DNA of 64,000 nucleotides from Clavibacter sp. VKM Ac-2872. Lineage in GTDB: Bacteria; Actinomycetota; Actinomycetes; Actinomycetales; Microbacteriaceae. A program made the position numbers and the translations under genes. The stretch lies in the NCBI RefSeq assembly GCF_015351105.1, contig NZ_JADKRR010000005.1, forward strand, positions 15,243 through 79,242. The letters run 5' to 3'. The notes under the pieces are model-generated. The model did no database searches. It had not been told where the DNA came from and saw nothing but the letters and a program-made list of their open reading frames with translations. Positions 1 to 61,190 of the stretch are shown one piece after another (position 1 is the stretch's first letter; the number at the start of each line of letters is the position of its first letter).

Positions 1-165
1 TGGACTTGGTGTCTGTTCCCTGGCTGGGGCTGGACTTGGTGTCCGGTCCCCTTGAAGCGTGATGAGAAGGTAGCACCTGGTTGAGATGAGTCAGAACGAG
101 TTCTCCACAGGGCTTAGGTGGGTGCGAAACGATCTCCTCGCTGGCAGCGCTGTCCCTGCGGCGAG
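1..165. repeat. Left copy of ~165 bp direct repeat (IS-end-like)
   Basis: This segment matches 3450-3615 with only scattered substitutions. It contains two copies of a 12-base core, ggacttggtgtc, at 2 and 31. It continues through a shared stretch (gatgagaaggtagcacctgg and onward) to about position 165. The window edge cuts it, so more core copies may lie upstream. Clusters of short repeats at element ends are known for IS21-type elements and serve as transposase sites; no transposase gene is present here. Together with the right copy it brackets the oxidoreductase/isopentenyltransferase cassette. Confidence 0.8.
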
Positions 166-190
166 GCTGCAGGCAGCCTCGAGAGAGGGC

Positions 191-1243
191 TCATGCTGTC
201 TCAGCTGGCGTGCGGACGAAGCGTCGGGCTAGCTCTGCCAGCCGCTGACGATCCGAGCCCGTCACATCGAGGACCTCGGCGTCGGCGTATCGCGCGAACC
301 AACGGACCTGACGCCGGGAGTAGTTCTTGGTCACTCGCGTGGTGGATGTCACGGCATCCTCTATTGAGCACCGGCGGTCTAGGACTGCAATCGCCTGAGG
401 GTATCCGTGTGCGGTACTTGCGGTCTGTCCGGCTTCGAGTCCCTGCTGGCGGAGCCTATCGACCTCGTCGAGGAGACCATCACGGAACATGCGTTCTGCT
501 CGTGCATGTAGGGCAGGGAACAACTGCTCGCGGTCCCGTCGTAGGTGGACCGCACGGTAGCCGCGCCACACGTGGGGTGCCGGGGGCAACGAAGGTACGC
601 TCTGGCCGCTCCGGATCGCAATTTCCAGTGAGCGGATCAACTGGCGGGGGTTTCGACGGTCGATCCTCGCTGAGGCAACTGGGTCAAGCGCATGTAAACG
701 GGCCAGTAGGTCGTCTGGACCCAGCTTCTGATGATCACGCTCGAGTTCCGCACGCAGGTCGGGGTCAGTGGCGGGGAAATCGAGGTCATGGAGAACTGCG
801 GATATGTAGAGTCCGCTACCGCCGACGAGGATCGCGACGTTGCCGCGACCGATGATGTTGTCGATGTCAGCCCGGGCTCTCGCGCGGTAGGTGGCTGCGG
901 TCGATCGTTCCGTCACATCGAGCACGTCGAGTTGATGGTGCGGGATGTCATGCCGGTCTGCAACAGGAATCTTGGCGGTCCCGATGTCCATGCCTCGGTA
1001 AAGCTGCATGGCATCGGCATTGACGATCTCCGCGGTCACGCCCAGTTCGCGATACCGAATTGCGACTTCAACGGAGAAATCTGTCTTCCCCGTTCCCGTC
1101 GCTCCAACGATCCCGATCAGATTGTCATGGTGACGCGCAGGCGCTGGAGCAGCACATCTGGGTGCGAGCGCAGCGCCGCCAGCGGCGCCGCCGTCGCGTA
1201 ACGCTTGGGTAAGAAGCGCATCATCGTGGTTTGGCGGGATCAC
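191..1243 (-). CDS. MiaA-family dimethylallyl (isopentenyl) transferase
   Basis: This 350-residue protein belongs to the tRNA dimethylallyltransferase/IPT family, which transfers a dimethylallyl group from DMAPP to N6 of adenine. Visible motifs are the P-loop GATGTGKT (residues 47-54), a NADAMQLYRGMDIGTAK segment matching the family's substrate-binding D-S/A-x-Q-x-Y motif, PHHQLDVLDV, VGGSGLYI, and the C-terminal RQVRWFARY close to the MiaA R-Q-x-T-W-F signature. The start is a GTG at 1243 that overlaps the TGA of the upstream oxidoreductase (GTGA), which implies translational coupling. The N-terminus has about 40 extra residues before the P-loop. The family also includes cytokinin-producing enzymes of plant-associated bacteria. 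Its position on a repeat-bounded cassette beside an oxidoreductase, rather than next to the usual miaB or hfq-type partners, suggests a special role, but housekeeping tRNA modification cannot be excluded. Confidence 0.85.
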   Translation of the reverse strand: MIPPNHDDALLTQALRDGGAAGGAALAPRCAAPAPARHHDNLIGIVGATGTGKTDFSVEVAIRYRELGVTAEIVNADAMQLYRGMDIGTAKIPVADRHDIPHHQLDVLDVTERSTAATYRARARADIDNIIGRGNVAILVGGSGLYISAVLHDLDFPATDPDLRAELERDHQKLGPDDLLARLHALDPVASARIDRRNPRQLIRSLEIAIRSGQSVPSLPPAPHVWRGYRAVHLRRDREQLFPALHARAERMFRDGLLDEVDRLRQQGLEAGQTASTAHGYPQAIAVLDRRCSIEDAVTSTTRVTKNYSRRQVRWFARYADAEVLDVTGSDRQRLAELARRFVRTPAETA

Positions 1244-2817
1244 TGCTGTTCCTCGTCCCACCCGTGGTGTCCGCGTCTCTCGAGCTCCCGCGCCAGCCGC
1301 CGGGCAAGCGCGACCATGGTGAGGAACGGATTCCATGACCCGTGGAACGGGAATGCGGCGCCGCCCAGGATGAACAAGTTGGTTGTACCTCGGAGTCGAC
1401 CCCAGATGTCGGTGACCGAGCTTGCCGCGTCGGTGCCCATGCGCAGCGTCCCTGTCTCGTGGAACGCCGTCGGCACTCGCCGGGTCGGAAGGCGCCCCTG
1501 CCATTGGTCCTCAACGGCATTCCAGTATTCGACTCGCGCGCCTCCGGCGACCGAGGACACCACCGCATCGATTGCCTCGTCCATCTGGTCCCAGACGTGC
1601 CTGTCGAAGTCGTCGAGGTGGATGGAGCTGATGGTCCGCCCACGCGTGTCAATCCAGATCCTGTTCATGTCTTGGCCGATTTGGCATAGCCCGTGGACGA
1701 GCAGGACCACGTGCTCTGGGTCGCACATGCGCTCGGGTGTGCCATCGCCGAACATGTCCGGCAACAAGTGGAAGACGCGTTGAAGGTCCCGTGCGGGCGC
1801 GGATGTGGCAGCGGCCGTGAGGTGCAGATGGAAATCTCGCGGCCCTGCCGTGCCGTTGATGTAGAGCGCGGCGAGCTCTGGTCGGTCGTGTGACAGGCCG
1901 CGAAAAGCAGTGCGTGGAATGCGGCAAGTTAAGAAGCTGGCGCCGCTAGCTGATAGGCGTTCCCCGGCGAGAGGTGTGCCCAGCTCCGGTTGGGAACGCA
2001 GAACGATGCTGGTCGCTTCTGCGCTACCGGCGGCGAGGATGACCCGTGTACCGCGCACGTCAACATCGCCGTGCTGCGTGCGTATGGCTACGACTTCACC
2101 GTTCGTCACCGACAGCGAATGGACCATGCAGCCGGTCAGAATCTGGATGCCGTTGTGATCAGCGGCTGCGCGTACGAGCGGGACGATGGCGGCGAACTTC
2201 TGGCCTCCGCCGTCGACATGGGGTAAGTAGGCGAGCGGCGCATCGAGGTCCTTGTCGCACGCGGGGGTGACGAGACTCCTCTGGCGAACGGTGGCGCGAA
2301 CGGATGACTTTCGTATGGCTGTATGCAAGGCGGCGTACTCGGGACCGGTGTCCACTGCGGGACGCGCTCCGAGCCAACTCCGGGCGTCATGCCAGTGTGC
2401 GTCGAGGTCGTCGATGATGTCTCGCGGCCAGCTGCGTAGCTGATCGCCTGTCGGTTGTGGACACGAGCCGCTCCACACGAGCGTGCGCCCCCCGAGATGT
2501 GGAACTTGCGGAGCCAGCGAAAGGTCGCCCTCGGACTCCCATGGCGATGCTCCCATCGAAGCCATCAGGGGCTGGTACGAGACACCGAGGTTCTGCGCAT
2601 GTGTGGGAGTCATCGAGCCCCCCTGTTCGAGGACCAGGACCCGCGCCTCTGGGCGTTGCTCTAACGTGGCATCGATGAAAGCGGCCGCGGTCCCGCCGCC
2701 GCCGACGACGACGTAGTCGAATGTTCCGTCGATCTCGTCGAGTGGGGATCCGGTGGGTGAAGGAGCCTGCTCCCGGGCTTGGCCGGAGTTGAGGCGATGG
2801 ACCTGTGTGGGTTGCAT
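1240..2817 (-). CDS. GMC-family FAD-dependent oxidoreductase
   Basis: This 525-residue flavoprotein is of the glucose-methanol-choline type, which oxidises alcohols or sugars. The dinucleotide-binding Rossmann motif DYVVVGGGGTAAAF lies at about residues 33-47. A following acidic-strand segment (RVLVLEQGG) is also present. The C-terminal GMC block is clear: FHETGTLRMG, then NLFILGGAAFP and HGSWNPFLTMVALA, giving the family His and Asn positions. ATG at 2817 was chosen because AGAGGGGG sits 6-7 bases upstream; an earlier in-frame start at 2925 has no such site. It is the first gene of a two-gene unit with the downstream isopentenyltransferase, their stop and start overlapping. The substrate is unknown; a prenyl alcohol or a cytokinin side-chain hydroxyl is one speculation from context. 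Confidence 0.85.
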   Translation of the reverse strand: MQPTQVHRLNSGQAREQAPSPTGSPLDEIDGTFDYVVVGGGGTAAAFIDATLEQRPEARVLVLEQGGSMTPTHAQNLGVSYQPLMASMGASPWESEGDLSLAPQVPHLGGRTLVWSGSCPQPTGDQLRSWPRDIIDDLDAHWHDARSWLGARPAVDTGPEYAALHTAIRKSSVRATVRQRSLVTPACDKDLDAPLAYLPHVDGGGQKFAAIVPLVRAAADHNGIQILTGCMVHSLSVTNGEVVAIRTQHGDVDVRGTRVILAAGSAEATSIVLRSQPELGTPLAGERLSASGASFLTCRIPRTAFRGLSHDRPELAALYINGTAGPRDFHLHLTAAATSAPARDLQRVFHLLPDMFGDGTPERMCDPEHVVLLVHGLCQIGQDMNRIWIDTRGRTISSIHLDDFDRHVWDQMDEAIDAVVSSVAGGARVEYWNAVEDQWQGRLPTRRVPTAFHETGTLRMGTDAASSVTDIWGRLRGTTNLFILGGAAFPFHGSWNPFLTMVALARRLARELERRGHHGWDEEQQ

Positions 2818-3130
2818 GGAACCCCCTCTGTCGGTGGGATCGGTAGCGCCTAGGGTGGCCACGCCACGAGGCGTCCGCGAATTCTCTGCACACCCCTCAT
2901 TGCGCGCTTGTGGGGATGACCTCACGGAATCGCGTCAGCGGTGGTTGCTTCGATGGCCTTCGAGTCACGCGGAGAGTGGCCAGGAGTTCCGTGACGGGAC
3001 CGTCCGCGCAGACACGTCCCACAGGATTTGCGGATCCCTGTCGCCGCACGAGAAGGCGACCTGTCCATCGCGGCCAGCGGGTTTTGATCCAGGCGGCATT
3101 ATGCAGGATGTAGTGTAGGTCGTACATTTC
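2818..3130. other. Upstream region of the GMC/IPT unit, no certain gene
   Basis: This stretch should hold the promoter of the oxidoreductase gene. A minus-strand open frame (about 2897-3154) overlaps it but has no convincing ribosome site or recognisable motif, so it is not called. Confidence 0.4.
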
Positions 3131-3308
3131 CACTAGAGCGCGTTGCGTGCGCACCGGCCGGTGTCGAAGAAGTTGCCTCCTTCGCGATCCCGCAGGCCTT
3201 GGGTTGCGGGACAGGTGTGGACTTCGCCCTGCCCCTATTCGTCGGCGCCGTCCTCGGCCTCACGGCAACGCAGACCGGCGCGCTCCTGGCCGCGGGGCTC
3301 GCCGAAGT
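3131..3308 (+). pseudogene. N-terminal fragment of an MFS transporter
   Basis: The frame reads a segment with GVDFALPLFVGAVLGL followed by TATQTGALLAAGLAE. This resembles the first membrane helices of the MFS protein encoded at 54141-55349 in this window (VIEFVLPLY, LGLSAAWTGLLLGAAL). The similarity stops abruptly near 3308, where sequence leading into the repeat cluster begins. It is therefore best read as a transporter gene cut by insertion of the repeat-bounded element. No start codon with a ribosome site was found. Confidence 0.5.
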
Positions 3309-3380: not shown

Positions 3381-3615
3381 GGACTTGGTGTCCGGTCCCG
3401 GGTGAGGTACGGACTTGGTGTCCGTGCCTCGTTGTGGTTGGCCAGGGAATGGACTTGGTGTCTGTTCCCTGGCTGGGGCTGGACTTGGTGTCCGGTCCCC
3501 TTGAAGAGTGATGAGAAGGTAGCACCTGGTTGAGATCAGTCAGAACGAGTTCTCCACAGGGCTTAGGTGGGTGCGAAACGATCTCATCGCCGGCAGCGCT
3601 GCCCCTGCGGCGAGA
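3381..3615. repeat. Right repeat cluster and right copy of the ~165 bp direct repeat
   Basis: Four copies of the core ggacttggtg(tc) lie at 3381, 3411, 3451 and 3481, spaced 30, 40 and 30 bases. From 3450 on the sequence repeats the left copy, including the tail through the ctcatcgccggcagcgctgcccctgc-like segment. The regular spacing suits binding sites for an element-encoded protein. Confidence 0.8.
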
Positions 3616-3948: not shown

Positions 3949-4515
3949 TCAGCCGTCGACGGTGATGATCTGGATGTCGCCGAGGGCGGCGAGCGGTTCG
4001 GGGTTGCCCACGCGGTCCTGCACGATCGCGCCGCAGATGATGTCCGCGACCCACAGGACGGGTTCCACGGGGCCTCGTCGGTGATCGAGCCGGAGCGGTC
4101 TGTTGAGGGCGCGTGCGGCGCGGAGCGTGTCGAGGTGGTCGCGATCCCGCCGGTCATCTGCCGGTCCACGCGACTCCGCTACGAGGAGCGCGACGTCGCG
4201 CATCGTGAGTTCATGCAGAAGCCGTTCCATCGTCTTCCGGCGCCGTCGCTCGAACGGTTCGGTGCTGTCGACCGAGCGGACCACCACCAGCCGTTCGAGA
4301 GCGAGCTCTGCGACTGCGGCGGCGAGTTGCAGGCGCCGGGGTTCGCTCTCCTCATGCCAGTGCACCTTCCTGACCTTGGTCCGCCGTAGTCCGTGCATCA
4401 CGTCCCGCACCGTGTCGAGGTGCTGCTCGTCGCAGATCGCGGCGGCGAGGATGTAGGTGCCGGGGTCGCGGTTCTCCTGGGATCCAGACTCGTCGACGAA
4501 CGCGGTCCGGGTCAC
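3949..4515 (-). CDS. DUF3800-like protein coupled to the resolvase
   Basis: This 188-residue protein starts with an AFVDESGSQ motif and ends with WVADIICGAIVQD. These are the two hallmark regions of DUF3800 proteins, a family with an RNase H-like fold suspected of nuclease activity. The acidic residues in VDES and WVAD match the positions expected for metal binding in such folds. Its GTG start overlaps the TGA of the resolvase gene (GTGA), so the two are translated as a pair. The role is unknown; association with mobile elements is common for this family. Confidence 0.65.
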   Translation of the reverse strand: MTRTAFVDESGSQENRDPGTYILAAAICDEQHLDTVRDVMHGLRRTKVRKVHWHEESEPRRLQLAAAVAELALERLVVVRSVDSTEPFERRRRKTMERLLHELTMRDVALLVAESRGPADDRRDRDHLDTLRAARALNRPLRLDHRRGPVEPVLWVADIICGAIVQDRVGNPEPLAALGDIQIITVDG

Positions 4516-33613: not shown

Positions 33614-36019
33614 GTGCATCCGGCGACGTTCCTCATGATGACGATGCACGTCCTCTCCGCCGGGGACGGGTATACCTACTACACGAGCGAGGTCGCGACC
33701 GGCGACGCGAAGCGCGATCGCGACCGCGAGCTCGGCGACTACTACACCGTGGACGGGAACCCTCCCGGGCGGTGGATGGGTGGCGGGGCCGACGTCCTCG
33801 GCGTTTCGGGGACGGTCACCGAGGAGCAGATGAAGGCCCTATACGGTGAGGGGCTGCACCCGGACGCGGACCGCATCATCGCCGACGCCCTGGCCGAAGG
33901 GGTGTCCGCGAAGGAGGCACAGCAGCGCGCCAAGCTCGGCCGCTCCTACTACGCCTACCGTGCAGGACCCACCACGCTGCAGGGGCGGATCCAGGCTGGC
34001 TACGACACGTTCCAGCGTCTCAACGGGCACGAACCTGACGCCGAGGAACGCCGGCTCATCCGGGCCCGCGAGGGTGCGCAGGCGTTCCGCGACGCCAAGG
34101 GTCGCGAGCCGGCGGACAAGGAAGAGCTCGGCAAGTTCATCACCGCCGCGACCCGCCCCGATCAGTCCGCGGTCGCGGGATTCGACCTCGTGTGCTCCCC
34201 GTCGAAGAGCGTCTCCGTCCTCTGGGCACTTGGCGACATGGACACCCGGAAGGCGATCGAGGCGGCCCAGGAGCAGGCCGTGCGGGACACGATCGGCTAC
34301 CTCGAGCGGGAGGCCATAGCCACCCGCGCCGGTACCAACGGGGTCGCGCAGATCGAGGTCGAGGGCGGCATCGCGGCGACCGTGTTCCGCCACTATGACT
34401 CGCGCAACGGGGACCCGCAGCTGCACGATCACGTGGTGGTCGCGAACAAGGTCAAGGGCGTCGACGGCAAGTGGCGCACCATCGACTCCAAGCTCCTGCA
34501 CCGCATGAACGTGCCGGCGTCGGAGTTCTACAACGCCGCCGTGATGTCCGAGGTGTGCCGGCGGCTCGGGGTCACGACGACCGCCCGGGTGCCCTCCCCC
34601 GGCAAGCGGCCGGTGATGGAGATCGCGGGTGTCGACCCGGACCTGATCGACACGTTCTCCTCCCGCTCGGCCGCGATCCGCACCATCACCGCACGCCTGA
34701 CGGAGGAGTACCAGCGCGACCACGGCCGTGCCCCGGACGCGAAGACCCTCATCCGCATCGCCCAGCAGGCGACGTTGGAGACCCGCCCGCAGAAAGACCA
34801 CGTCCGCTCCCCGCAGGCGATCCACGAGGCCGCGGTCGCCCGCGTCGGCGCCGACCGCGCCGCCGGCCTCCTCGGCGCTGCGCGCGATCTCGCACGAAGC
34901 GTCACAGCAGCCGTAACCGCTGACGTCGACGAGATCACGGCGCAGGTGCTTCGCACGGTGGAGGAGCATCACGCGGTGTGGGGCGCGCACGTCATCGAGG
35001 CCGAAGCGCGCCGTCACCTCGCCGCCCGGATCCCCAACCAGCGCATCGCGGAGCCCATCGTGCAGAAGGTCACCCGTGCGGCCGTGGGCGCCTCGGTGAC
35101 CCTCACTCCCCCGTCGCCGCATGGCGCGTTCACGCCGCTCACGCGGTCGGACGGGTCGAGCATCTACGACCACAAGGGCAAGACCTTGTTCACGTCGACG
35201 CGGATCCTCGACGCCGAGGACCAGCTCCTCGCCGCCGCGCGCACCCGCACCGTTTCCCCCATCAGCCGGGACGCATTCGAGCGGACCGCCGCGACGCACA
35301 CCGGACCGCTCGACGCCGGCCAACGGGATCTCGCCCGCGAGTTCGCGACCTCCGACCGCGAGCTCGTGGTCGGCATCGGGCCCGCCGGCGCCGGCAAGAC
35401 GACCGCGCTGCGCCTGGCCGCGACCGCGCTCGAGGACGGCGGCTGCCGCATGATCGGCCTCGCCCCCTCCGCCCCCGCCGCGTCCGTGATCGCCGAAGCG
35501 GTCGGCATCGAGGCGACCACCATCCACGGGTTCCTGACCGCCCACGCGCAAGCCTAGCTGTCCGCGAAGTACGAGATCCGCGCGGGCGACGTCCTGGTCG
35601 TCGACGAGGCCGGCATGGCCGGCACCCAGCGCCTCGCCGCCCTGCACACCATCGCCCGCGAGCACGGCGCGCACGTGCGCCTCATCGGCGACGACCGCCA
35701 GCTATCCGCCGTCGAGGCAGGCGGGGCGCTGCGCCTGATCGACCGCGAGGTGGGGTCCGTGCGCCTCGAGCACGTCCACCGCTTCCAGGACGCCGACGAA
35801 GCCGAAGCCTCGCTGCACCTGCGTGACCCGCTGCGCCCCGGTGACCCGTTCGCCTGGTACCAGGCGAACGGTCGCGTGGTCGGCGGCGACGAAGACCGGA
35901 TGACCGACGCCGTGTTCGCCGGCTGGCAGACCGACACCGACGCCGGTCTCCGCTCGCTGATGCTCGCGCCCACCGGCGCCACCGTCACCGAGCTCAACGC
36001 CCGCAGCGACAGCTGGTGA
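33614..36019 (+). pseudogene. MobF/TraA-type conjugative relaxase with in-frame TAG
   Basis: The N-terminal TrwC-like relaxase domain has HVLSAGDGYTYYTSEVA (tyrosines), SKSVSVLWA, and the His triad in FRHYDSRNGDPQLHDHVVV (about residues 258-277). A helicase part has Walker A GIGPAGAGKTTAL (~587) and Walker B VLVVDEAGMAGT, then IGDDRQLSAVEAGG. A TAG at 35555-35557 separates the A and B motifs; the frame continues uninterrupted to 36019. At that point the protein stops short, without the C-terminal helicase motifs. Without readthrough a 647-residue relaxase with half a helicase would be made. Start may be GTG 33614 or ATG 33647. Confidence 0.8.
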
Positions 36020-53926: not shown

Positions 53927-54140
53927 CATCACTCGCGGCTATGGGCCACCGCTCTGATGCAGCCCTCTGCCTCACGTGAGTGGCGCCGGCGGCCCGGCCC
54001 CGATCGCCGATCGCGGCTCACCCGCACCCGAGACCAGGAGCGCTCATGGCATCGCCACCGAGCATGACCGGCGGCCATCCGTCGCGCACCGGCGCCCCGG
54101 GTCGTGGCTGCTCCACGGTCCCGTCATCAAGGCCGAGGTG

Positions 54141-55349
54141 ATGATCCCCGCCTCCGGTGCGGACGCGCGGATGCGGTGGATGCTCCGGAGCGTGACGCTG
54201 ATCAGCGGTGCCGGCCAGGTCATCGAATTCGTCCTGCCCCTGTACGCGGCTGATGGGCTCGGTCTCTCCGCCGCCTGGACCGGGTTGCTACTCGGCGCTG
54301 CGCTGATCGCCGCCTTCCTCGTCCGGCCGTTGGCCGGTGTCGCGGTCGACCGCGTCGACCGGCACACGATCGCAGCCGCGTCCGCTGTCATCTTGGCTGC
54401 CGCCTATGTGCTGCTCGCCACCGCTGACTCATTCGTCGTCGCCCTGGTCTCCGCTGTCATCGGACGCGCGGCCAGCACCTTCCTCTGGATCGCGTTCCGG
54501 GCGATGGCAGCGGGGCGGAGCTCCACCGAGCCGCGAGCGTCGTCGCGCATGCTCCGGGCCGAGGACCTCGGTTCATGGCTGGTGCTCGCCCCGGCGGTGG
54601 GGCTCGTGTCCCTGGTCGGTTTCGAGGCGGCCCTCGCCGCCGCCGCGGCTTGCGCGCTCGGCGGGGCGGTCGTGCTCGTGCGAATGCGCACCGTGCAGAG
54701 GGCGCCTCGTGCGGAGTCGTTGCCGATCGGCGAGCTCATGCTCGGAGACAGGAGGACCGCGCTCACGCGGAAGCTGAAGCGCGACCTCCGCCCCGTGCTG
54801 CTCGCAGTCCTCCTGATCGGTGCCGCCGAGGCGGCGATGTCGCTCCTCCTCCTCATGCACCTCCAGCGTCATCTCGGGCTCAGCCCGCTCGCCCTCGCCG
54901 TGACCGTCCTTCCCAGCCTCCTCGCGCTGACCGTCGCGCCCCAGAACGTGCGGACGCTCACGATCCGGTACGGGCGGCGACGCATGATCTGGTGCGCCTT
55001 GGCGGCGCACGTCGTGTGCGCCGTCGGCCTCGCGGTCAGTCGCGAGCCGACGATGATCGCCGCACTCTGGGCTCTCTCAGCAGTCGGGCTGTCCGCCCTC
55101 CTGCCGATCGAGCAGACCATCGTCGCCGCGGTGGCGGGCACCCGCAGGGTCGGCCGAGCCTTCGGCCTGTATGAGACTGTCGCGCTCCTCGGTGCAGGGG
55201 CGGGTGCCCTGTTCGCCGGCGTCCTCTTCGACAACTGGCCATGGCCAGCGATGTGCTTCGCCTGCGCTGGTGCCATGGTCGGCGGCGGACTCGTGCTGGT
55301 GTCCTGCGTGCCCGTGACGCGCATGGTGCCGACCCGAGTCGAGGCCTGA
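54141..55349 (+). CDS. MFS transporter
   Basis: 402 residues with about twelve hydrophobic helices. The loop 2-3 motif is recognisable (FLVRPLAGVAVDRVDRH, MFS motif A form). Central cytoplasmic loop after helix 6 (MRTVQRAPRAESLPIGELML). ATG 54141 chosen at the start of the membrane region; 53976 gives a non-membrane extension. Possible drug or metabolite efflux. A fragment of a related gene sits at 3131-3308. Confidence 0.85.
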   Translation: MIPASGADARMRWMLRSVTLISGAGQVIEFVLPLYAADGLGLSAAWTGLLLGAALIAAFLVRPLAGVAVDRVDRHTIAAASAVILAAAYVLLATADSFVVALVSAVIGRAASTFLWIAFRAMAAGRSSTEPRASSRMLRAEDLGSWLVLAPAVGLVSLVGFEAALAAAAACALGGAVVLVRMRTVQRAPRAESLPIGELMLGDRRTALTRKLKRDLRPVLLAVLLIGAAEAAMSLLLLMHLQRHLGLSPLALAVTVLPSLLALTVAPQNVRTLTIRYGRRRMIWCALAAHVVCAVGLAVSREPTMIAALWALSAVGLSALLPIEQTIVAAVAGTRRVGRAFGLYETVALLGAGAGALFAGVLFDNWPWPAMCFACAGAMVGGGLVLVSCVPVTRMVPTRVEA

Positions 55350-57251: not shown

Positions 57252-60200
57252 GTGCACCAACTTGTCTCTCGCCGCCGTGATGGCGCGCCTCCACGGAGTG
57301 TGGGTGCTGTCGCGGCGACACTGAGCCTCACGCTTTTCGTCGCGTCGCTCAGCGTGGTCGCCCTCACCCCCTCGTCGGCCACCGCGGCCCCCGGTAACCC
57401 GGGAACGCCCAGCGCTCCCAAGACCCTGTACACCGAGAACTTCGAGAACCAGTCCACGACCAACCCCGTGCCGCTCGGCTCTTACACCGGCGCCGACGGC
57501 ACGACCTATGGTGCGGATGGCCTCTACACGGACCAGGGCGAGTGCAACGGACTCATCTTGAGCGTCAATTCGACATATGTGGGAAACCAGTGCGCCAACG
57601 GATCTAACGCGGCCAACAACAAGATCACGTTGAAGAGCATGGTGAGCGCGCTCGGCGCGCTCAATGGCACCGGTGCGGCCAACAACGCCGTTTCAGCGAT
57701 GACGGCGCAGCAGGATGTGCCGCCGAACACCGTGGAGTTCCGGACCACGAAGGACATCTCCCTTCCGACCGCGAACGGACGCTTCATCACCTTCGGTGTC
57801 AACGTGGCGGCCGCATGTGCTGACGGAGGCGCGAACTTCAAGCAGCCCAGGATGGCATTCAACTACGTCGCGAGCGACGGAACGGAGACGTCTACGACGA
57901 ACTCTCCTGTCAATCCTTGCGATGGCGGAGGAGGCGGCATCCAGGCGAAGTCACTTGTCTCGGACAAGGGCATCCTCTTCAGCGGCAACAAGGTCGGCAT
58001 CAACATGCGCAACGTCGATGGCGGCGGCAACCGCGGCAACGACCACGCGTTCGACGACATCAAGATCCTCGACGTCACCCCGCAGCTGGACAAGTCGTTC
58101 ACCCCTGCGCTGCAGCGGACCGGCGACGCGTCGACGCTGACCTTCACCGTCACGAACACCAGCGAGCTCGGTTCCAAGGATGGTTGGTCCTTCAAGGACA
58201 AGCTCCCGGCGAACCTGACGCTGGCGAACTCCACCGTGGGCGGCACCTGCAACGCGACCACGACCGCGACGGCCGGCGGTGACACCATCGACGTCACGAA
58301 CGGCAAGCTGGCGAAGGGGGACAGGTCGTGCACGATCACCGTCCAGGTCACGTCGACGACGGCGGGCACGTACTCCAACTGCCCCACCACGAACGTCACG
58401 ACGACCGGCCTCGACCTCCCCGCATGTGCAAACGTCGAGTTCCGCGACCCCAGCTACACGACCGCGAAGACCGTCGACAAGACGACCGCGATCCCCGGCG
58501 ACAACGTCACCTACACCGTCACGGTCAAGAACACCGGTGGGGTCCCCTACACGGCCGAGAGACCAGCGACCTTCACCGACGACCTCTCGAAGGTCACCGA
58601 TGACGCCACCTACAACAACGACGCCACGCAAGGGGCGACCGTCTCCGGCAACACCCTGTCGTGGTCGGGAGCCCTCGGGGCGAACGAGACCAAGACGATC
58701 ACCTACTCGGTCAAGGTCAACAACCCCGACACCGGGGACCACCACCTCGACAACGTGGTGACCCCCACCGGGCCCGGTGGCACGTGCGAGACTCCCGGCG
58801 GCTGCGCCACGCGCTCGGACGTCAAGGAGTTCTCGACGACCAAGACCGTGGACGCCACGGCGGTCAACCCCGGCGAGAAGGTCACCTACACGATCACGGT
58901 CCAGAACACCGGTCAGGTGGCGTACACCGCCCAGGACCCCGCGAAGCTGACCGACGATCTCTCCAACGTCACCGACGATGCCACCTACAACGGCGACGCC
59001 TCGAACGGTGCGACGGTCAACGGCAACACGCTGTCGTGGTCGGGCTCCTTGGCCGTCGGAGAGACGAAGACGATCACGTACTCGTTCACGGTCAACAACC
59101 CGGACACCGGAGACAAGCGGCTGAAAAACCAGGTGGTGCCGGATGGCTCCAACGGCGGCCAGTGCATCGTCTGCTCCACCCAGGTGCCGACGCGATCTGG
59201 GACGATCACCAAGTCGGCGGACAAGACCACTGCCAACCCCGGTGACACCATCACCTACACGATCACGCTTACGAACGACGGCCAGGCCGACTACACGGCC
59301 GCCAACCCCGCGGGCTTCTCGGACGATCTCTCGCAGGTCGTCGATGACGCCAAGTACAACGGCGATGTCAGTGGCGGCGCGACCCAGAACGGGAACACCA
59401 TCTCGTGGCAGGGGCCGCTCGCGGTCGGCGAGGTGAAGTCGTTCACCTACACGGTGACTGTGAACAACCCGGACACGGGTGACCACCAGCTGAAGAACCA
59501 GGCGGTGCCCTCGGTACCCACCTGGCCCACGCCTCCTCCTGTCGTGGTGCCGGTGAAGGAGTACAAGGTCGACAAGTCGGCGGACATGAAGAACGTCCGG
59601 CCGGGTGAGACCGTCACGTACACGATCACCGTGACCAACACGGGTGCGGTCGACTACACGGCCGCGGACCCCGCGGGCTTCTCGGATGACCTGTCGCAGG
59701 TCGTCGATGACGCCAAGTACAACGGGGACGTCACCGGTGGCGCGACCCAGAACGGGAACACGCTCTCCTGGCAGGGACCGCTCGCGGTCGGTGCCGCCAC
59801 GACGTTCACGTACTCGGTGACGGTGAACAACCCGGACACGGGTGACCACCAGCTGAAGAACCAGGCGATTCCGCAGGATCCCAACATCCCGCCGCCGCCG
59901 GAGGTCGTGGTGCCGGTGAAGGAGTACAAGGTCGAGAAGTCCGCTGACAAGACTTCCGTCAAGGCCGGTGACACCGTGACCTACACGATCACGCTGACCA
60001 ACACGGGCCAGTCCGACTACACCGACACCGACCCCGCGGGCTTCTCGGATGACCTGTCAAAGGTCCTCGATGACGCCAAGTACAACGGTGACGTCACCGG
60101 TGGGGCCACGCAGGATGGGAACACGTTGTCTTGGAAGGGACCGCTCGCGGCTAGCGCCGTGAAGACGTTCACGTACTCGGTGACGGTCAACAACCCGGAC

Positions 60201-61190
60201 ACGGGCGACCACCAGCTGAGGAACCAGGCCGTGCCCCAGGACCCGACCATCACGCCCCCTCCGGAGGTCGTCGTGCCGGTCAAGGAGTACAAGGTCGAGA
60301 AGACGTCCGACAAGCCGGATGCCGCGCTGCGGTCCGGTGAGACGGTCACGTACAAGATCACCGTGACCAACACGGGTGGCGTCGACTACACGGCTGCGGA
60401 CCCGGCAGGGTTCTCGGACGACCTCGCCATGGTCACGGACGATGCGACGTACAACAACGACGTGACCGGTGGTGCGACCGTCAACGGGAACACCGCTTCC
60501 TGGTCCGGTGCTCTCGCTGCGGGCGCCGTGAAGGAGTTCACCTACTCCTTCACCGTCAACACCCCGGACACGGGCGACCACCACCTGAAGAACCAGGCCG
60601 TGCCGAACGACCCCGACTTCCCGCCGCCGCCGCCCGTGGAGCACTTCGTGCCCACGTACTCGGTCTCGAAGTCCGTGGACAAGTCCAGCGCCAAGCCGGG
60701 TGACATCGTCCGTTACACGATCACCATCACGAACACCGGGCAGGCCGCGTACACGCAGGAGAAGCCGGCATCGTTCACGGACGACCTCTCGCAGGTCGTG
60801 GACGACGCCACGTACAACCGCGACGCCAGCAACGGCGCGACGGTCTCCGGGCGCGTCCTCTCGTGGAAGGGGCCGCTGGCGGTGGGGGAGACGAAGACGG
60901 TGACGTACTCGTTCACGGTCAACACCCCGGACACCGGTGATCAGAAGCTCGCGAACACGGTCATCCCGACCGATCCGTCCGGCTCCTGCATCACGCCGGG
61001 AGGCTGCGCGACGACCACGAACGTCGTGCCGGACCCGCCCCACTTCCCGAGGGTCGCGACCGGCGGCATGGCGGTCGGCTCCGATCTGCTGTGGCCGATG
61101 GTCGGTCTTGCGGGTGGTTCCTTGATGGCGATGCTGGCACTGCTGGTGCTCGTGATGGCAGGCCGTCGTCGTGATGGCGACAGTGCCTGA
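57252..61190 (+). CDS. Large repeat-containing surface protein (DUF11-type modules)
   Basis: 1312 residues. Signal peptide (VAATLSLTLFVASLSVVAL, cleavage near ATAA). An N-terminal ~250-residue beta domain (LYTENFENQS, GVNVAAACADGGANF) is followed by a spacer module (residues ~275-395) and seven repeats of about 120 residues. Each repeat opens K-x-x-D...PG-x-x-V-x-Y-T-I-T-x-x-N-T-G and ends NNPDTGDHxLKNQ. At the C-terminus, PRVATGG precedes a membrane helix (LLWPMVGLAGGSLMAML) and a basic tail GRRRDGD, a sorting-signal layout without canonical LPxTG. The sortase gene overlaps its end, implying anchoring by it. Likely adhesin or stalk. Confidence 0.88.
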   Translation: MHQLVSRRRDGAPPRSVGAVAATLSLTLFVASLSVVALTPSSATAAPGNPGTPSAPKTLYTENFENQSTTNPVPLGSYTGADGTTYGADGLYTDQGECNGLILSVNSTYVGNQCANGSNAANNKITLKSMVSALGALNGTGAANNAVSAMTAQQDVPPNTVEFRTTKDISLPTANGRFITFGVNVAAACADGGANFKQPRMAFNYVASDGTETSTTNSPVNPCDGGGGGIQAKSLVSDKGILFSGNKVGINMRNVDGGGNRGNDHAFDDIKILDVTPQLDKSFTPALQRTGDASTLTFTVTNTSELGSKDGWSFKDKLPANLTLANSTVGGTCNATTTATAGGDTIDVTNGKLAKGDRSCTITVQVTSTTAGTYSNCPTTNVTTTGLDLPACANVEFRDPSYTTAKTVDKTTAIPGDNVTYTVTVKNTGGVPYTAERPATFTDDLSKVTDDATYNNDATQGATVSGNTLSWSGALGANETKTITYSVKVNNPDTGDHHLDNVVTPTGPGGTCETPGGCATRSDVKEFSTTKTVDATAVNPGEKVTYTITVQNTGQVAYTAQDPAKLTDDLSNVTDDATYNGDASNGATVNGNTLSWSGSLAVGETKTITYSFTVNNPDTGDKRLKNQVVPDGSNGGQCIVCSTQVPTRSGTITKSADKTTANPGDTITYTITLTNDGQADYTAANPAGFSDDLSQVVDDAKYNGDVSGGATQNGNTISWQGPLAVGEVKSFTYTVTVNNPDTGDHQLKNQAVPSVPTWPTPPPVVVPVKEYKVDKSADMKNVRPGETVTYTITVTNTGAVDYTAADPAGFSDDLSQVVDDAKYNGDVTGGATQNGNTLSWQGPLAVGAATTFTYSVTVNNPDTGDHQLKNQAIPQDPNIPPPPEVVVPVKEYKVEKSADKTSVKAGDTVTYTITLTNTGQSDYTDTDPAGFSDDLSKVLDDAKYNGDVTGGATQDGNTLSWKGPLAASAVKTFTYSVTVNNPDTGDHQLRNQAVPQDPTITPPPEVVVPVKEYKVEKTSDKPDAALRSGETVTYKITVTNTGGVDYTAADPAGFSDDLAMVTDDATYNNDVTGGATVNGNTASWSGALAAGAVKEFTYSFTVNTPDTGDHHLKNQAVPNDPDFPPPPPVEHFVPTYSVSKSVDKSSAKPGDIVRYTITITNTGQAAYTQEKPASFTDDLSQVVDDATYNRDASNGATVSGRVLSWKGPLAVGETKTVTYSFTVNTPDTGDQKLANTVIPTDPSGSCITPGGCATTTNVVPDPPHFPRVATGGMAVGSDLLWPMVGLAGGSLMAMLALLVLVMAGRRRDGDSA
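58440..61020 (+). repeat. Seven in-frame DUF11-type repeats
   Basis: Units of about 360-372 bases. Units 3, 4 and 5 are close to identical at DNA level (the stretch encoding FSDDLSQVVDDAKYNGDV recurs), showing recent duplication or gene conversion. Copy number may vary between strains. Confidence 0.85.

What the first reader, a model, noticed from the sequence alone, without database searches (positions are those of the whole stretch)
191..2817. IPT/MiaA gene coupled to a GMC oxidoreductase on a repeat-bounded cassette
A MiaA-family prenyltransferase is translationally coupled (GTGA) to a GMC flavoprotein. The pair lies between about 165-bp direct repeats next to a truncated transporter. Housekeeping miaA genes are not usually in such a pair. 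In plant-associated actinobacteria, mobile IPT genes make cytokinins (the fas genes of Rhodococcus fascians are the known case). A prenylation-oxidation pair would be a different two-step route to a modified adenine or other prenylated product.
Basis: partly seen in the sequence, partly recalled or inferred. Interest (0 to 1): 0.75.

Follow-up and report, generated by a model that had tools for sequence, protein, structure and literature searches.

The report
Plasmid-borne adenine-prenylating and oxidase gene pair
Two tightly linked plasmid genes in a plant-pathogen genus, one from a family that adds a prenyl group to adenosine and one that looks like a sugar or nucleoside oxidase, probably work together to make a modified, cytokinin-like nucleoside.

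Summary
On the minus strand a GMC flavoprotein (1240-2817) overlaps a MiaA-family prenyltransferase (191-1243) by 4 nt, between 165-bp direct repeats (97%), with a 34-codon MFS fragment at 3202-3303. The genome, a Clavibacter, has its own miaB-miaA-dapF, so this miaA is extra. The pair is no assembly oddity: it lies on plasmid pCI1 of three C. insidiosus strains (86-88% identical), and a second GMC copy (97%) with the start of a second IPT ends a contig of the same genome. dN/dS (0.24-0.33 for the GMC, 0.27 for the full IPT) points to purifying selection. The IPT groups with Curtobacterium housekeeping MiaA, on a long branch. The closest GMCs outside Clavibacter (50-54%) sit in operons with an adenylosuccinate-synthetase paralog, a HAD phosphatase and an MFS transporter. 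In pseudouridimycin biosynthesis a tRNA pseudouridine synthase paralog and a GMC oxidase (SapB/PumI) work in an analogous order. Best reading: a minimal mobile pathway to an oxidised N6-prenyl-adenosine. Product, substrate, export and plant effect are untested. The repeats belong to an array beside a scaffold gap, not to a recognisable transposon; the fas resemblance is only analogy.

The parts
191..1243 (-). MiaA-family prenyltransferase (IPT), 350 aa, GTG start inside the GMC stop
   Evidence: Pfam IPPT 222.7 bits; TIGR00174 over cut-off; 86.3% to pCI1 miaA; dN/dS 0.27 against pCI1
1240..1243 (-). 4-nt stop/start overlap (GTGA)
   Evidence: Sequence; kept on pCI1 (GTGA) and C9 (ATGA)
1240..2817 (-). 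GMC flavin oxidoreductase, 525 aa; predicted catalytic pair H453 and N496
   Evidence: PF05199/PF00732 over cut-off; 88.1% to pCI1, 97% to C9, 54% to G178; H453 and N496 invariant in the 8 sequences aligned, catalytic role recalled
2822..2829 (-). ribosome-binding-site-like AGAGGGGG, 4 nt before the GMC ATG
   Evidence: Sequence; inference
1..165 (+). left direct repeat (GGACTTGGTGTC array unit), next to a 100-N scaffold gap
3450..3614 (+). right direct repeat, 97% to the left copy
3202..3303 (+). MFS transporter fragment, 34 codons, 88% to residues 28-61 of the pCI1 MFS
1..2941 (.). segment shared with pCI1 (91.5% over 2956 aligned nt)
963..3212 (.). segment shared with contig C9 of the same genome (96.2% over 2250 nt, cut by the contig end)
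4512..5141 (-). neighbour: serine resolvase-family recombinase, followed by a DUF3800-like gene at 3949-4515 (20.8 bits, just under the cut-off of 21); outside the repeats

Best explanation
The pair is a minimal mobile nucleoside-modifying pathway. Step 1: a diverged, plasmid-borne MiaA paralog adds a dimethylallyl group to N6 of adenosine, in tRNA or on a free adenine nucleotide (the enzyme family is shown by sequence; the substrate form is open). Step 2: the freed N6-prenyl-adenosine is oxidised by the co-translated GMC flavoenzyme at a sugar hydroxyl, most likely the ribose 5'-OH, giving an aldehyde or acid and H2O2. Step 3: the product leaves the cell, perhaps by the MFS transporter that lies beside the pair on pCI1 and near it on C8. 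The product would be an oxidised cytokinin-riboside analogue acting in the plant or on competitors. Shown: both genes, overlap, extra copy, recurrence, signs of purifying selection, plasmid setting. Inferred: substrate, order of steps, site of oxidation, export and purpose.
For: Extra MiaA in 2 of 18 Clavibacter species genomes, the same two that carry the GMC. Overlap kept in three distinct copies. dN/dS, window against pCI1: GMC 0.30 (bootstrap 0.21-0.44), IPT 0.27 (0.17-0.41). The IPT keeps 82 of 91 columns that are at least 95% conserved in 109 other MiaA sequences; the P-loop and the Asp equivalent to E. coli Asp42 are not among the nine departures (roles recalled). The nearest non-Clavibacter GMCs (G178, G787) lie in a tightly packed run PurA paralog - HAD phosphatase - GMC - MFS, with overlaps of 4 nt at PurA/HAD and GMC/MFS in both genomes, and of 4 nt (G178) and 20 nt (G787) at HAD/GMC. 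So the close kin of this GMC recur with an adenine-nucleotide enzyme and a transporter. The four best solved structures for the GMC profile are two pyranose oxidases, a GMC oxidoreductase family protein and 6'''-hydroxyparomomycin C oxidase, mostly oxidases of sugar hydroxyls. Precedent: SapB, a GMC-family flavin oxidase, oxidises the 5'-OH of pseudouridine (PMC10127198, passages); in that pathway a tRNA pseudouridine synthase, PumJ, comes first (PMC8724604, passages).
Against: No product, expression or enzyme data. SapB was not compared by sequence. More distant GMC relatives (about 30%) sit in mixed contexts: a purH/SAICAR-synthase/beta-RFAP-synthase locus in Mesorhizobium and Aminobacter, but no such set in Cupriavidus, G414, G1121 and G858, judged from translations without a domain search. 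None of the annotated pCI1 genes is a phosphatase, aminotransferase or nucleosidase. The MFS link is weak: no MFS match on the 29.8 kb of C9 that were read, the MFS is split into two annotated pieces in pCI1 of ATCC 10253, it has no match to the MFS of G178, and on C8 it points the other way from the pair and lies across a scaffold gap. The IPT comparison of window and C9 gives a higher dN/dS of 0.48 over only 93 codons. The pair is rare.
Confidence: 0.42

Rival explanations
1. Extra tRNA modification: the plasmid miaA works on tRNA A37 as a second or altered MiaA, and the GMC has an unrelated substrate. Their overlap reflects operon packing only.
For: The family match is to tRNA MiaA, over the equivalog cut-off, and the alignment to E. 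coli MiaA runs through residues 43-328. Changes such as R201Q (E. coli R167) and I279H beside the GYxQ motif could shift tRNA choice (inference).
Against: All 18 Clavibacter genomes searched have a PF01715 gene besides this one where it is present. The overlap is kept in three copies. None of 80 other miaA loci has this GMC in the 3.5-17 kb held.
Confidence: 0.25
2. Cytokinin maker plus side-chain oxidase: the IPT supplies isopentenyl-adenine type cytokinin and the GMC oxidises the side-chain alcohol of zeatin-type forms (from the host or from hydroxylated tRNA), tuning or inactivating them.
For: GMC enzymes commonly oxidise primary and allylic alcohols (recalled). The IPT is intact MiaA family. 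The pCI1 records come from Medicago.
Against: It needs a hydroxylation step; no annotated pCI1 gene provides it. The nearest GMC relatives sit with PurA/HAD/MFS, which points to the nucleoside core. The best solved structures are mostly sugar oxidases.
Confidence: 0.17
3. Passenger DNA: the pair is carried by plasmid recombination at the repeat array and has no selected role.
For: Mosaic plasmids; the repeat array, MFS fragment and third MFS on C11 show much rearrangement.
Against: dN/dS well below 1 with bootstrap ranges below 0.5 in three comparisons; no internal stop, and length differences of 3, 6 and 15 nt only.
Confidence: 0.1
4. Detoxification: the GMC inactivates a host or competitor compound and the IPT is a partner in that task.
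For: A GMC named chloramphenicol-inactivating oxidoreductase is in the PDB listing (8b7s).
Against: No match among defence models for 4 of 4 proteins; nothing links it with prenyl-adenine.
Confidence: 0.06

Closest known systems
Housekeeping MiaA (TIGR00174), nearest Curtobacterium
   Same: Domain, catalytic motifs, 58-63% identity to four named Curtobacterium loci; 100/99 support for grouping with Curtobacterium
   Different: Plasmid-borne, overlapping a GMC gene, no miaB/dapF match in the C8 and pCI1 stretches searched (for C8), GC3 0.65 against 0.97 for the own C6 gene and 0.87-0.92 in two Curtobacterium genes, stem of 0.59, nine departures at conserved columns
Pseudouridimycin pum/sap pathway (PumJ + SapB/PumI)
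   Same: A tRNA-modifying-enzyme relative followed by a GMC-family flavin oxidase on a nucleoside (PMC10127198, PMC8724604; passages seen)
   Different: Pseudouridine instead of prenyl-adenosine; later steps of that pathway not seen here; sequence kinship with SapB not tested
Genus g55 island: PurA paralog - HAD - GMC - MFS (G178, G787)
   Same: GMC 54% identical, tightly packed run, adenine-nucleotide enzyme next to the GMC
   Different: PurA paralog instead of IPT, plus phosphatase, one glycosyltransferase-like protein and one unassigned protein
Rhodococcus fascians fas operon
   Same: Linked IPT and flavoprotein on plasmids of a plant-associated actinobacterium (recalled)
   Different: No true PF01745 IPT in this genome; GMC is not a cytokinin oxidase; P450 and LOG genes were not searched for

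Membership tests
MiaA (TIGR00174) | Score over the equivalog cut-off | tested here: met
   191.2 bits against 148.65
MiaA (TIGR00174) | Catalytic and nucleotide-binding motifs kept | tested here: met
   82 of 91 near-invariant columns kept; the P-loop and the Asp42 equivalent are not among the nine departures; roles recalled
MiaA (TIGR00174) | Prenylates A37 of tRNA | not testable with these tools
   Needs enzyme assay or complementation
GMC oxidoreductase | N and C domains over Pfam cut-offs, FAD motif, His/Asn pair | tested here: met
   PF00732 24.9 against 23, PF05199 57.5 against 24.6; G39, G41, H453, N496 invariant in 8 sequences; roles recalled
SapB/PumI nucleoside 5'-oxidase | Sequence kinship within the GMC family | not tested
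   No SapB sequence was at hand
SapB/PumI nucleoside 5'-oxidase | Oxidises the 5'-OH of a nucleoside | not testable with these tools
   Needs assay
fas-type cytokinin operon | PF01745 adenylate IPT | tested here: not met
   Only match in the own genome is 22.4 bits (cut-off 20) over positions 3-45 of 233, on the cut MiaA copy at C9:34677-34820. The same family also rings in 9 of 14 control genomes, E. coli among them, so weak matches to MiaA are expected
fas-type cytokinin operon | Cytokinin oxidase/dehydrogenase partner | tested here: not met
   The partner gene is GMC; the rest of the genome was not searched for one
Composite transposon | Transposase or IS ends bounding the pair | tested here: not met
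   Repeats are direct. Of the ORFs in or across the repeat-bounded stretch, eight were run through Pfam: only IPT and GMC matched. Other listed ORFs there, all overlapping these, were not run. The left side is unresolved because of a 100-N gap

The most novel reading that the evidence does not exclude
A plant-pathogen plasmid pathway in which a tRNA-prenylating enzyme has been recruited, with a coupled GMC nucleoside oxidase, to make and release a 5'-oxidised N6-isopentenyl-adenosine: a new kind of cytokinin-like or anti-cytokinin nucleoside, built on the same logic as pseudouridimycin but from a prenyl-purine.
Probability: 0.27. Interest if true: 0.82.

Novelty: new variant of a known kind. 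Interest (0 to 1): 0.62.

Why it matters
If the pair works as proposed, it would be a two-enzyme route to an oxidised prenyl-adenosine in a plant-pathogen genus. It would also be, with pseudouridimycin, one of two cases known to me of a tRNA-modifying enzyme and a GMC oxidase together making a small nucleoside. It gives a direct, testable gene target for asking whether Clavibacter releases cytokinin-like compounds. The library held no paper with the words Clavibacter, insidiosus and cytokinin, none with Clavibacter and MiaA, and none with isopentenyltransferase, GMC oxidoreductase and plasmid. Thirteen papers hold Clavibacter, cytokinin and isopentenyl; I saw them as a listing only and opened none, so a mention there is not excluded.

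Tried and rejected
Rejected: (1) 'only miaA of the genome': false, C6 carries miaB-miaA-dapF. (2) 'unique to this assembly': false. (3) Defence system: no PADLOC match for 4 of 4 proteins. (4) fas kinship: PF01745 not met. (5) Curtobacterium as donor of the pair: GMC in 0 of 66 genomes of genus g32, which is Curtobacterium by identity of its MiaA rows with named loci, although the IPT groups with their MiaA. (6) A general rule 'this GMC family means nucleosides': only the 50-54% relatives and the Mesorhizobium/Aminobacter locus support it; the others near 30% do not.

Led nowhere: structure prediction of the GMC (switched off). Paper searches gave no description of the pair. Find-searches for isopentenyl and dimethylallyl in the main texts of PMC5358740, PMC8844524 and PMC7692107 found none. 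PMC4424300, read whole, does not mention the genes. PMC10127198 and PMC8724604 were seen as passages only. All other papers were seen as search listings.

Limits: in the family, class and phylum GMC scans at most three first-look candidates per genome were scored, so misses are possible. The three pCI1 records are one species. G398 (unnamed) carries a 3,030-nt stretch identical to pCI1 and is not independent. In the tree 14 of 36 inner branches are open, and the place of the IPT within the Curtobacterium group is not resolved. In one search the G178 GMC was translated in a wrong frame; its rows (again in the query file) were dropped, and the proper frame was used and later. An earlier count gave a 7-nt gap between HAD and GMC in G787; one search shows a 20-nt overlap instead.
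Full report
What is there. The window is bases 15243-79242 of contig C8 (94,384 bp) of a 3.51-Mb genome in 12 contigs. The miaB, miaA and dapF of contig C6 are 93, 85 and 94% identical to those of Clavibacter michiganensis subsp. tessellarius (L018), so the genome is very probably a Clavibacter. C8 looks like a plasmid: it carries a TrwC relaxase domain (window 33614-35557), and the first 25 kb of the window share pieces with 55 plasmid records, 35 of them Clavibacter and 11 Curtobacterium. On the minus strand lie a GMC flavoprotein (1240-2817) and a MiaA-family prenyltransferase (191-1243), overlapping by 4 nt. A ribosome-binding-site-like AGAGGGGG stands 4 nt before the GMC ATG.

Extra or only miaA. 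A Pfam IPPT search of the whole genome gives two genes: the window copy and one on C6. The C6 gene lies between miaB and dapF. Each of 18 Clavibacter species genomes has a PF01715 gene; only G000 and G398 have two. The same two of 18 carry the GMC. G398 contains a 3,030-nt stretch identical to pCI1.

Recurrence. tblastn of the GMC against 72,556 plasmid records found 7 records. Three are pCI1 plasmids of C. michiganensis subsp. insidiosus strains ATCC 10253, R1-1 and R1-3 (88.1% identity), each with miaA directly after the GMC and an MFS and a DUF3892 gene before it. The pCI1 miaA is 86.3% identical; the other 68 of 71 plasmid records matched by the IPT are below 60%. In 398 genomes of the family the next best IPT match after the window is 60-62% identical, in genus g32. 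In the own genome a second GMC (97%) lies at C9:32983-34554. It is followed by the first 281 nt of a second IPT, in frame and with ATG start, cut by the contig end. C9 also carries a TrwC relaxase, so it too looks like plasmid DNA.

Selection. Window against pCI1: GMC dN/dS 0.30 (bootstrap 0.21-0.44), IPT 0.27 (0.17-0.41). Window against C9: GMC 0.24 (0.12-0.46). Without bootstrap: GMC pCI1 against C9 0.33; the short C9 IPT piece 0.48 against the window (93 codons) and 0.24 against pCI1 (91 codons). The three GMC reading frames have no internal stop, and their lengths differ by 3 and 15 nt; the two full IPTs differ by 6 nt. This speaks for function, not decay.

Origin. In a tree of 41 MiaA rows (39 different) the window and pCI1 IPTs form one clade (100/100) with a stem of 0.59. 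They fall in one group (100/99) with MiaA of Curtobacterium and of genus g32, whose rows include exact matches to named Curtobacterium, and apart from Clavibacter MiaA; their place inside that group is not resolved. Identities are 58-63% to four named Curtobacterium loci and 52% to the own C6 protein. GC3 is 0.65 (IPT) and 0.74 (GMC), against 0.97 for the own C6 miaA and 0.87-0.92 for two Curtobacterium genes, so I infer that the transfer is old. Of 80 miaA loci fetched, 80 show miaB or dapF (76 miaB, 79 dapF) and none shows this GMC, within 3.5-17 kb of DNA held per locus. The GMC is absent from 66 of 66 genomes of genus g32.

The IPT protein. It keeps 82 of 91 columns that are at least 95% conserved among 109 other MiaA sequences. 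Departures are V116A, Q120R, A191S, R201Q, A205S, I279H, R306K and A309S, plus G290R in the window copy only. By the printed alignment to E. coli MiaA, R201Q falls at R167 and I279H at V249. From memory these lie in or near the parts that hold tRNA, so a changed substrate is possible but not shown.

The GMC protein. It is remote from known structures: no PDB match at 1e-10 with a three-sequence profile. An eight-sequence profile finds, best first, a pyranose oxidase (8qve), a GMC oxidoreductase family protein (7qf8), 6'''-hydroxyparomomycin C oxidase (7dve) and another pyranose oxidase (9fl2); 112 sequences pass 0.01, among them many other GMC enzymes. It is rare: 2 of 398 Microbacteriaceae genomes at 1e-30 (own and G178), 2 of 394 in the class at 1e-40 (own and a distant G414), 3 of 396 in the phylum at 1e-60 (own, G858, G1121), and 2 of 28 in the genus of G178 at 1e-30. 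The first three scans scored at most three candidates per genome.

The telling relatives. In G178 and G787 (proteins 70-84% identical between the two) the GMC lies in a compact run: PurA paralog, HAD phosphatase, GMC, MFS, flanked by one glycosyltransferase-like protein (25.9 bits, cut-off 27) and one protein without a Pfam match. PurA/HAD and GMC/MFS overlap by 4 nt in both genomes; HAD/GMC overlap by 4 nt in G178 and 20 nt in G787. Thus the nearest kin of this GMC work beside an adenine-nucleotide enzyme, a phosphatase and a transporter. Further out (about 30%) the picture is mixed. Mesorhizobium and Aminobacter plasmids, nearly the same locus, have the GMC beside purH, a SAICAR synthase and a beta-RFAP synthase, the kind of set described for formycin biosynthesis (PMC8724604, passages). 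Cupriavidus, G414, G1121 and G858 show no such set, judged from translations. The seventh plasmid record, of Rhizobium leguminosarum, has no annotation and was not analysed.

Mechanism. SapB is a GMC-family flavin oxidase that oxidises pseudouridine at the 5'-OH with release of H2O2 (PMC10127198, passages). In the same pathway a TruD-like tRNA pseudouridine synthase, PumJ, is proposed to make the nucleoside first (PMC8724604, passages). The Clavibacter pair has the same two kinds of enzyme: a relative of a tRNA-modifying enzyme and a GMC oxidase. I therefore propose N6-prenylation of adenosine followed by oxidation of the freed nucleoside, probably at the ribose 5'-OH, and export. Family identity, overlap, recurrence and signs of selection are shown. 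Substrate, site of oxidation, export and effect on plants are inferred.

Against it. There is no product or enzyme evidence. None of the annotated pCI1 genes is a phosphatase, aminotransferase or nucleosidase. The MFS partner is uncertain: it points the other way on C8 and lies beyond a scaffold gap, is split into two annotated pieces in ATCC 10253, has no match to the MFS of G178, and was not found on the 29.8 kb of C9 read.

Repeats and mobility. The 165-bp repeats are parts of an array with the core GGACTTGGTGTC. The array also stands after the pair on pCI1 with a period of 100 bp and at the end of C11, a 5.4-kb contig with a third MFS copy. The left repeat directly follows a 100-N scaffold gap. 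The arrays look like places of rearrangement. Eight ORFs in or across the repeat-bounded stretch were run through Pfam; only the IPT and the GMC matched.

Verdict. The cytokinin reading is plausible but untested, and the fas comparison is analogy only. I rate it a new variant of a known kind of nucleoside pathway.

Noticed in passing
L091:4859-12199 and L110:6736-14072 (genomes G178, G787): Island of lower GC3 with a PurA paralog whose motif reads GGDNAGHT where ordinary PurA has GGHNAGHT (recalled), HAD phosphatase, GMC, MFS, a glycosyltransferase-like and an unassigned protein: a likely nucleoside pathway.
   Followed up: partly
L093 and L142 (Mesorhizobium and Aminobacter plasmids): GMC gene beside purH, SAICAR synthase, beta-RFAP synthase, amidohydrolase and Rieske genes (annotations), resembling a C-nucleoside cluster of the formycin kind.
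   Followed up: no
window 1-165, 3450-3614; L088:14662-15953; C11 end: Array with core GGACTTGGTGTC (GGAC and GTCC form an imperfect palindrome), found in 18 of 143 loci, cassette loci or C11; role unknown.
   Followed up: partly
C8:15143-15242 (just left of window base 1): 100-N scaffold gap inside the repeat array, so the left edge of the cassette and the link to the MFS gene are unproven.
   Followed up: yes
C9:32983-34834 (L090): Second GMC copy with the IPT cut by the contig end, on a contig with its own TrwC relaxase (L103:14759-18586): two plasmids may each hold the pair.
   Followed up: partly
L088:9713-10931 (pCI1 of ATCC 10253): The MFS gene next to the pair is annotated in two overlapping pieces here but whole in R1-1 and R1-3.
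   Followed up: no
window 53976-55349 +: A further MFS transporter, 49% identical to the pCI1 MFS.
   Followed up: no
window 57252-61190 +; L003:31-1623 +: Large proteins with DUF11/DUF7927/DUF7507 repeats, the second with an LPXTG anchor: probable surface proteins.
   Followed up: no
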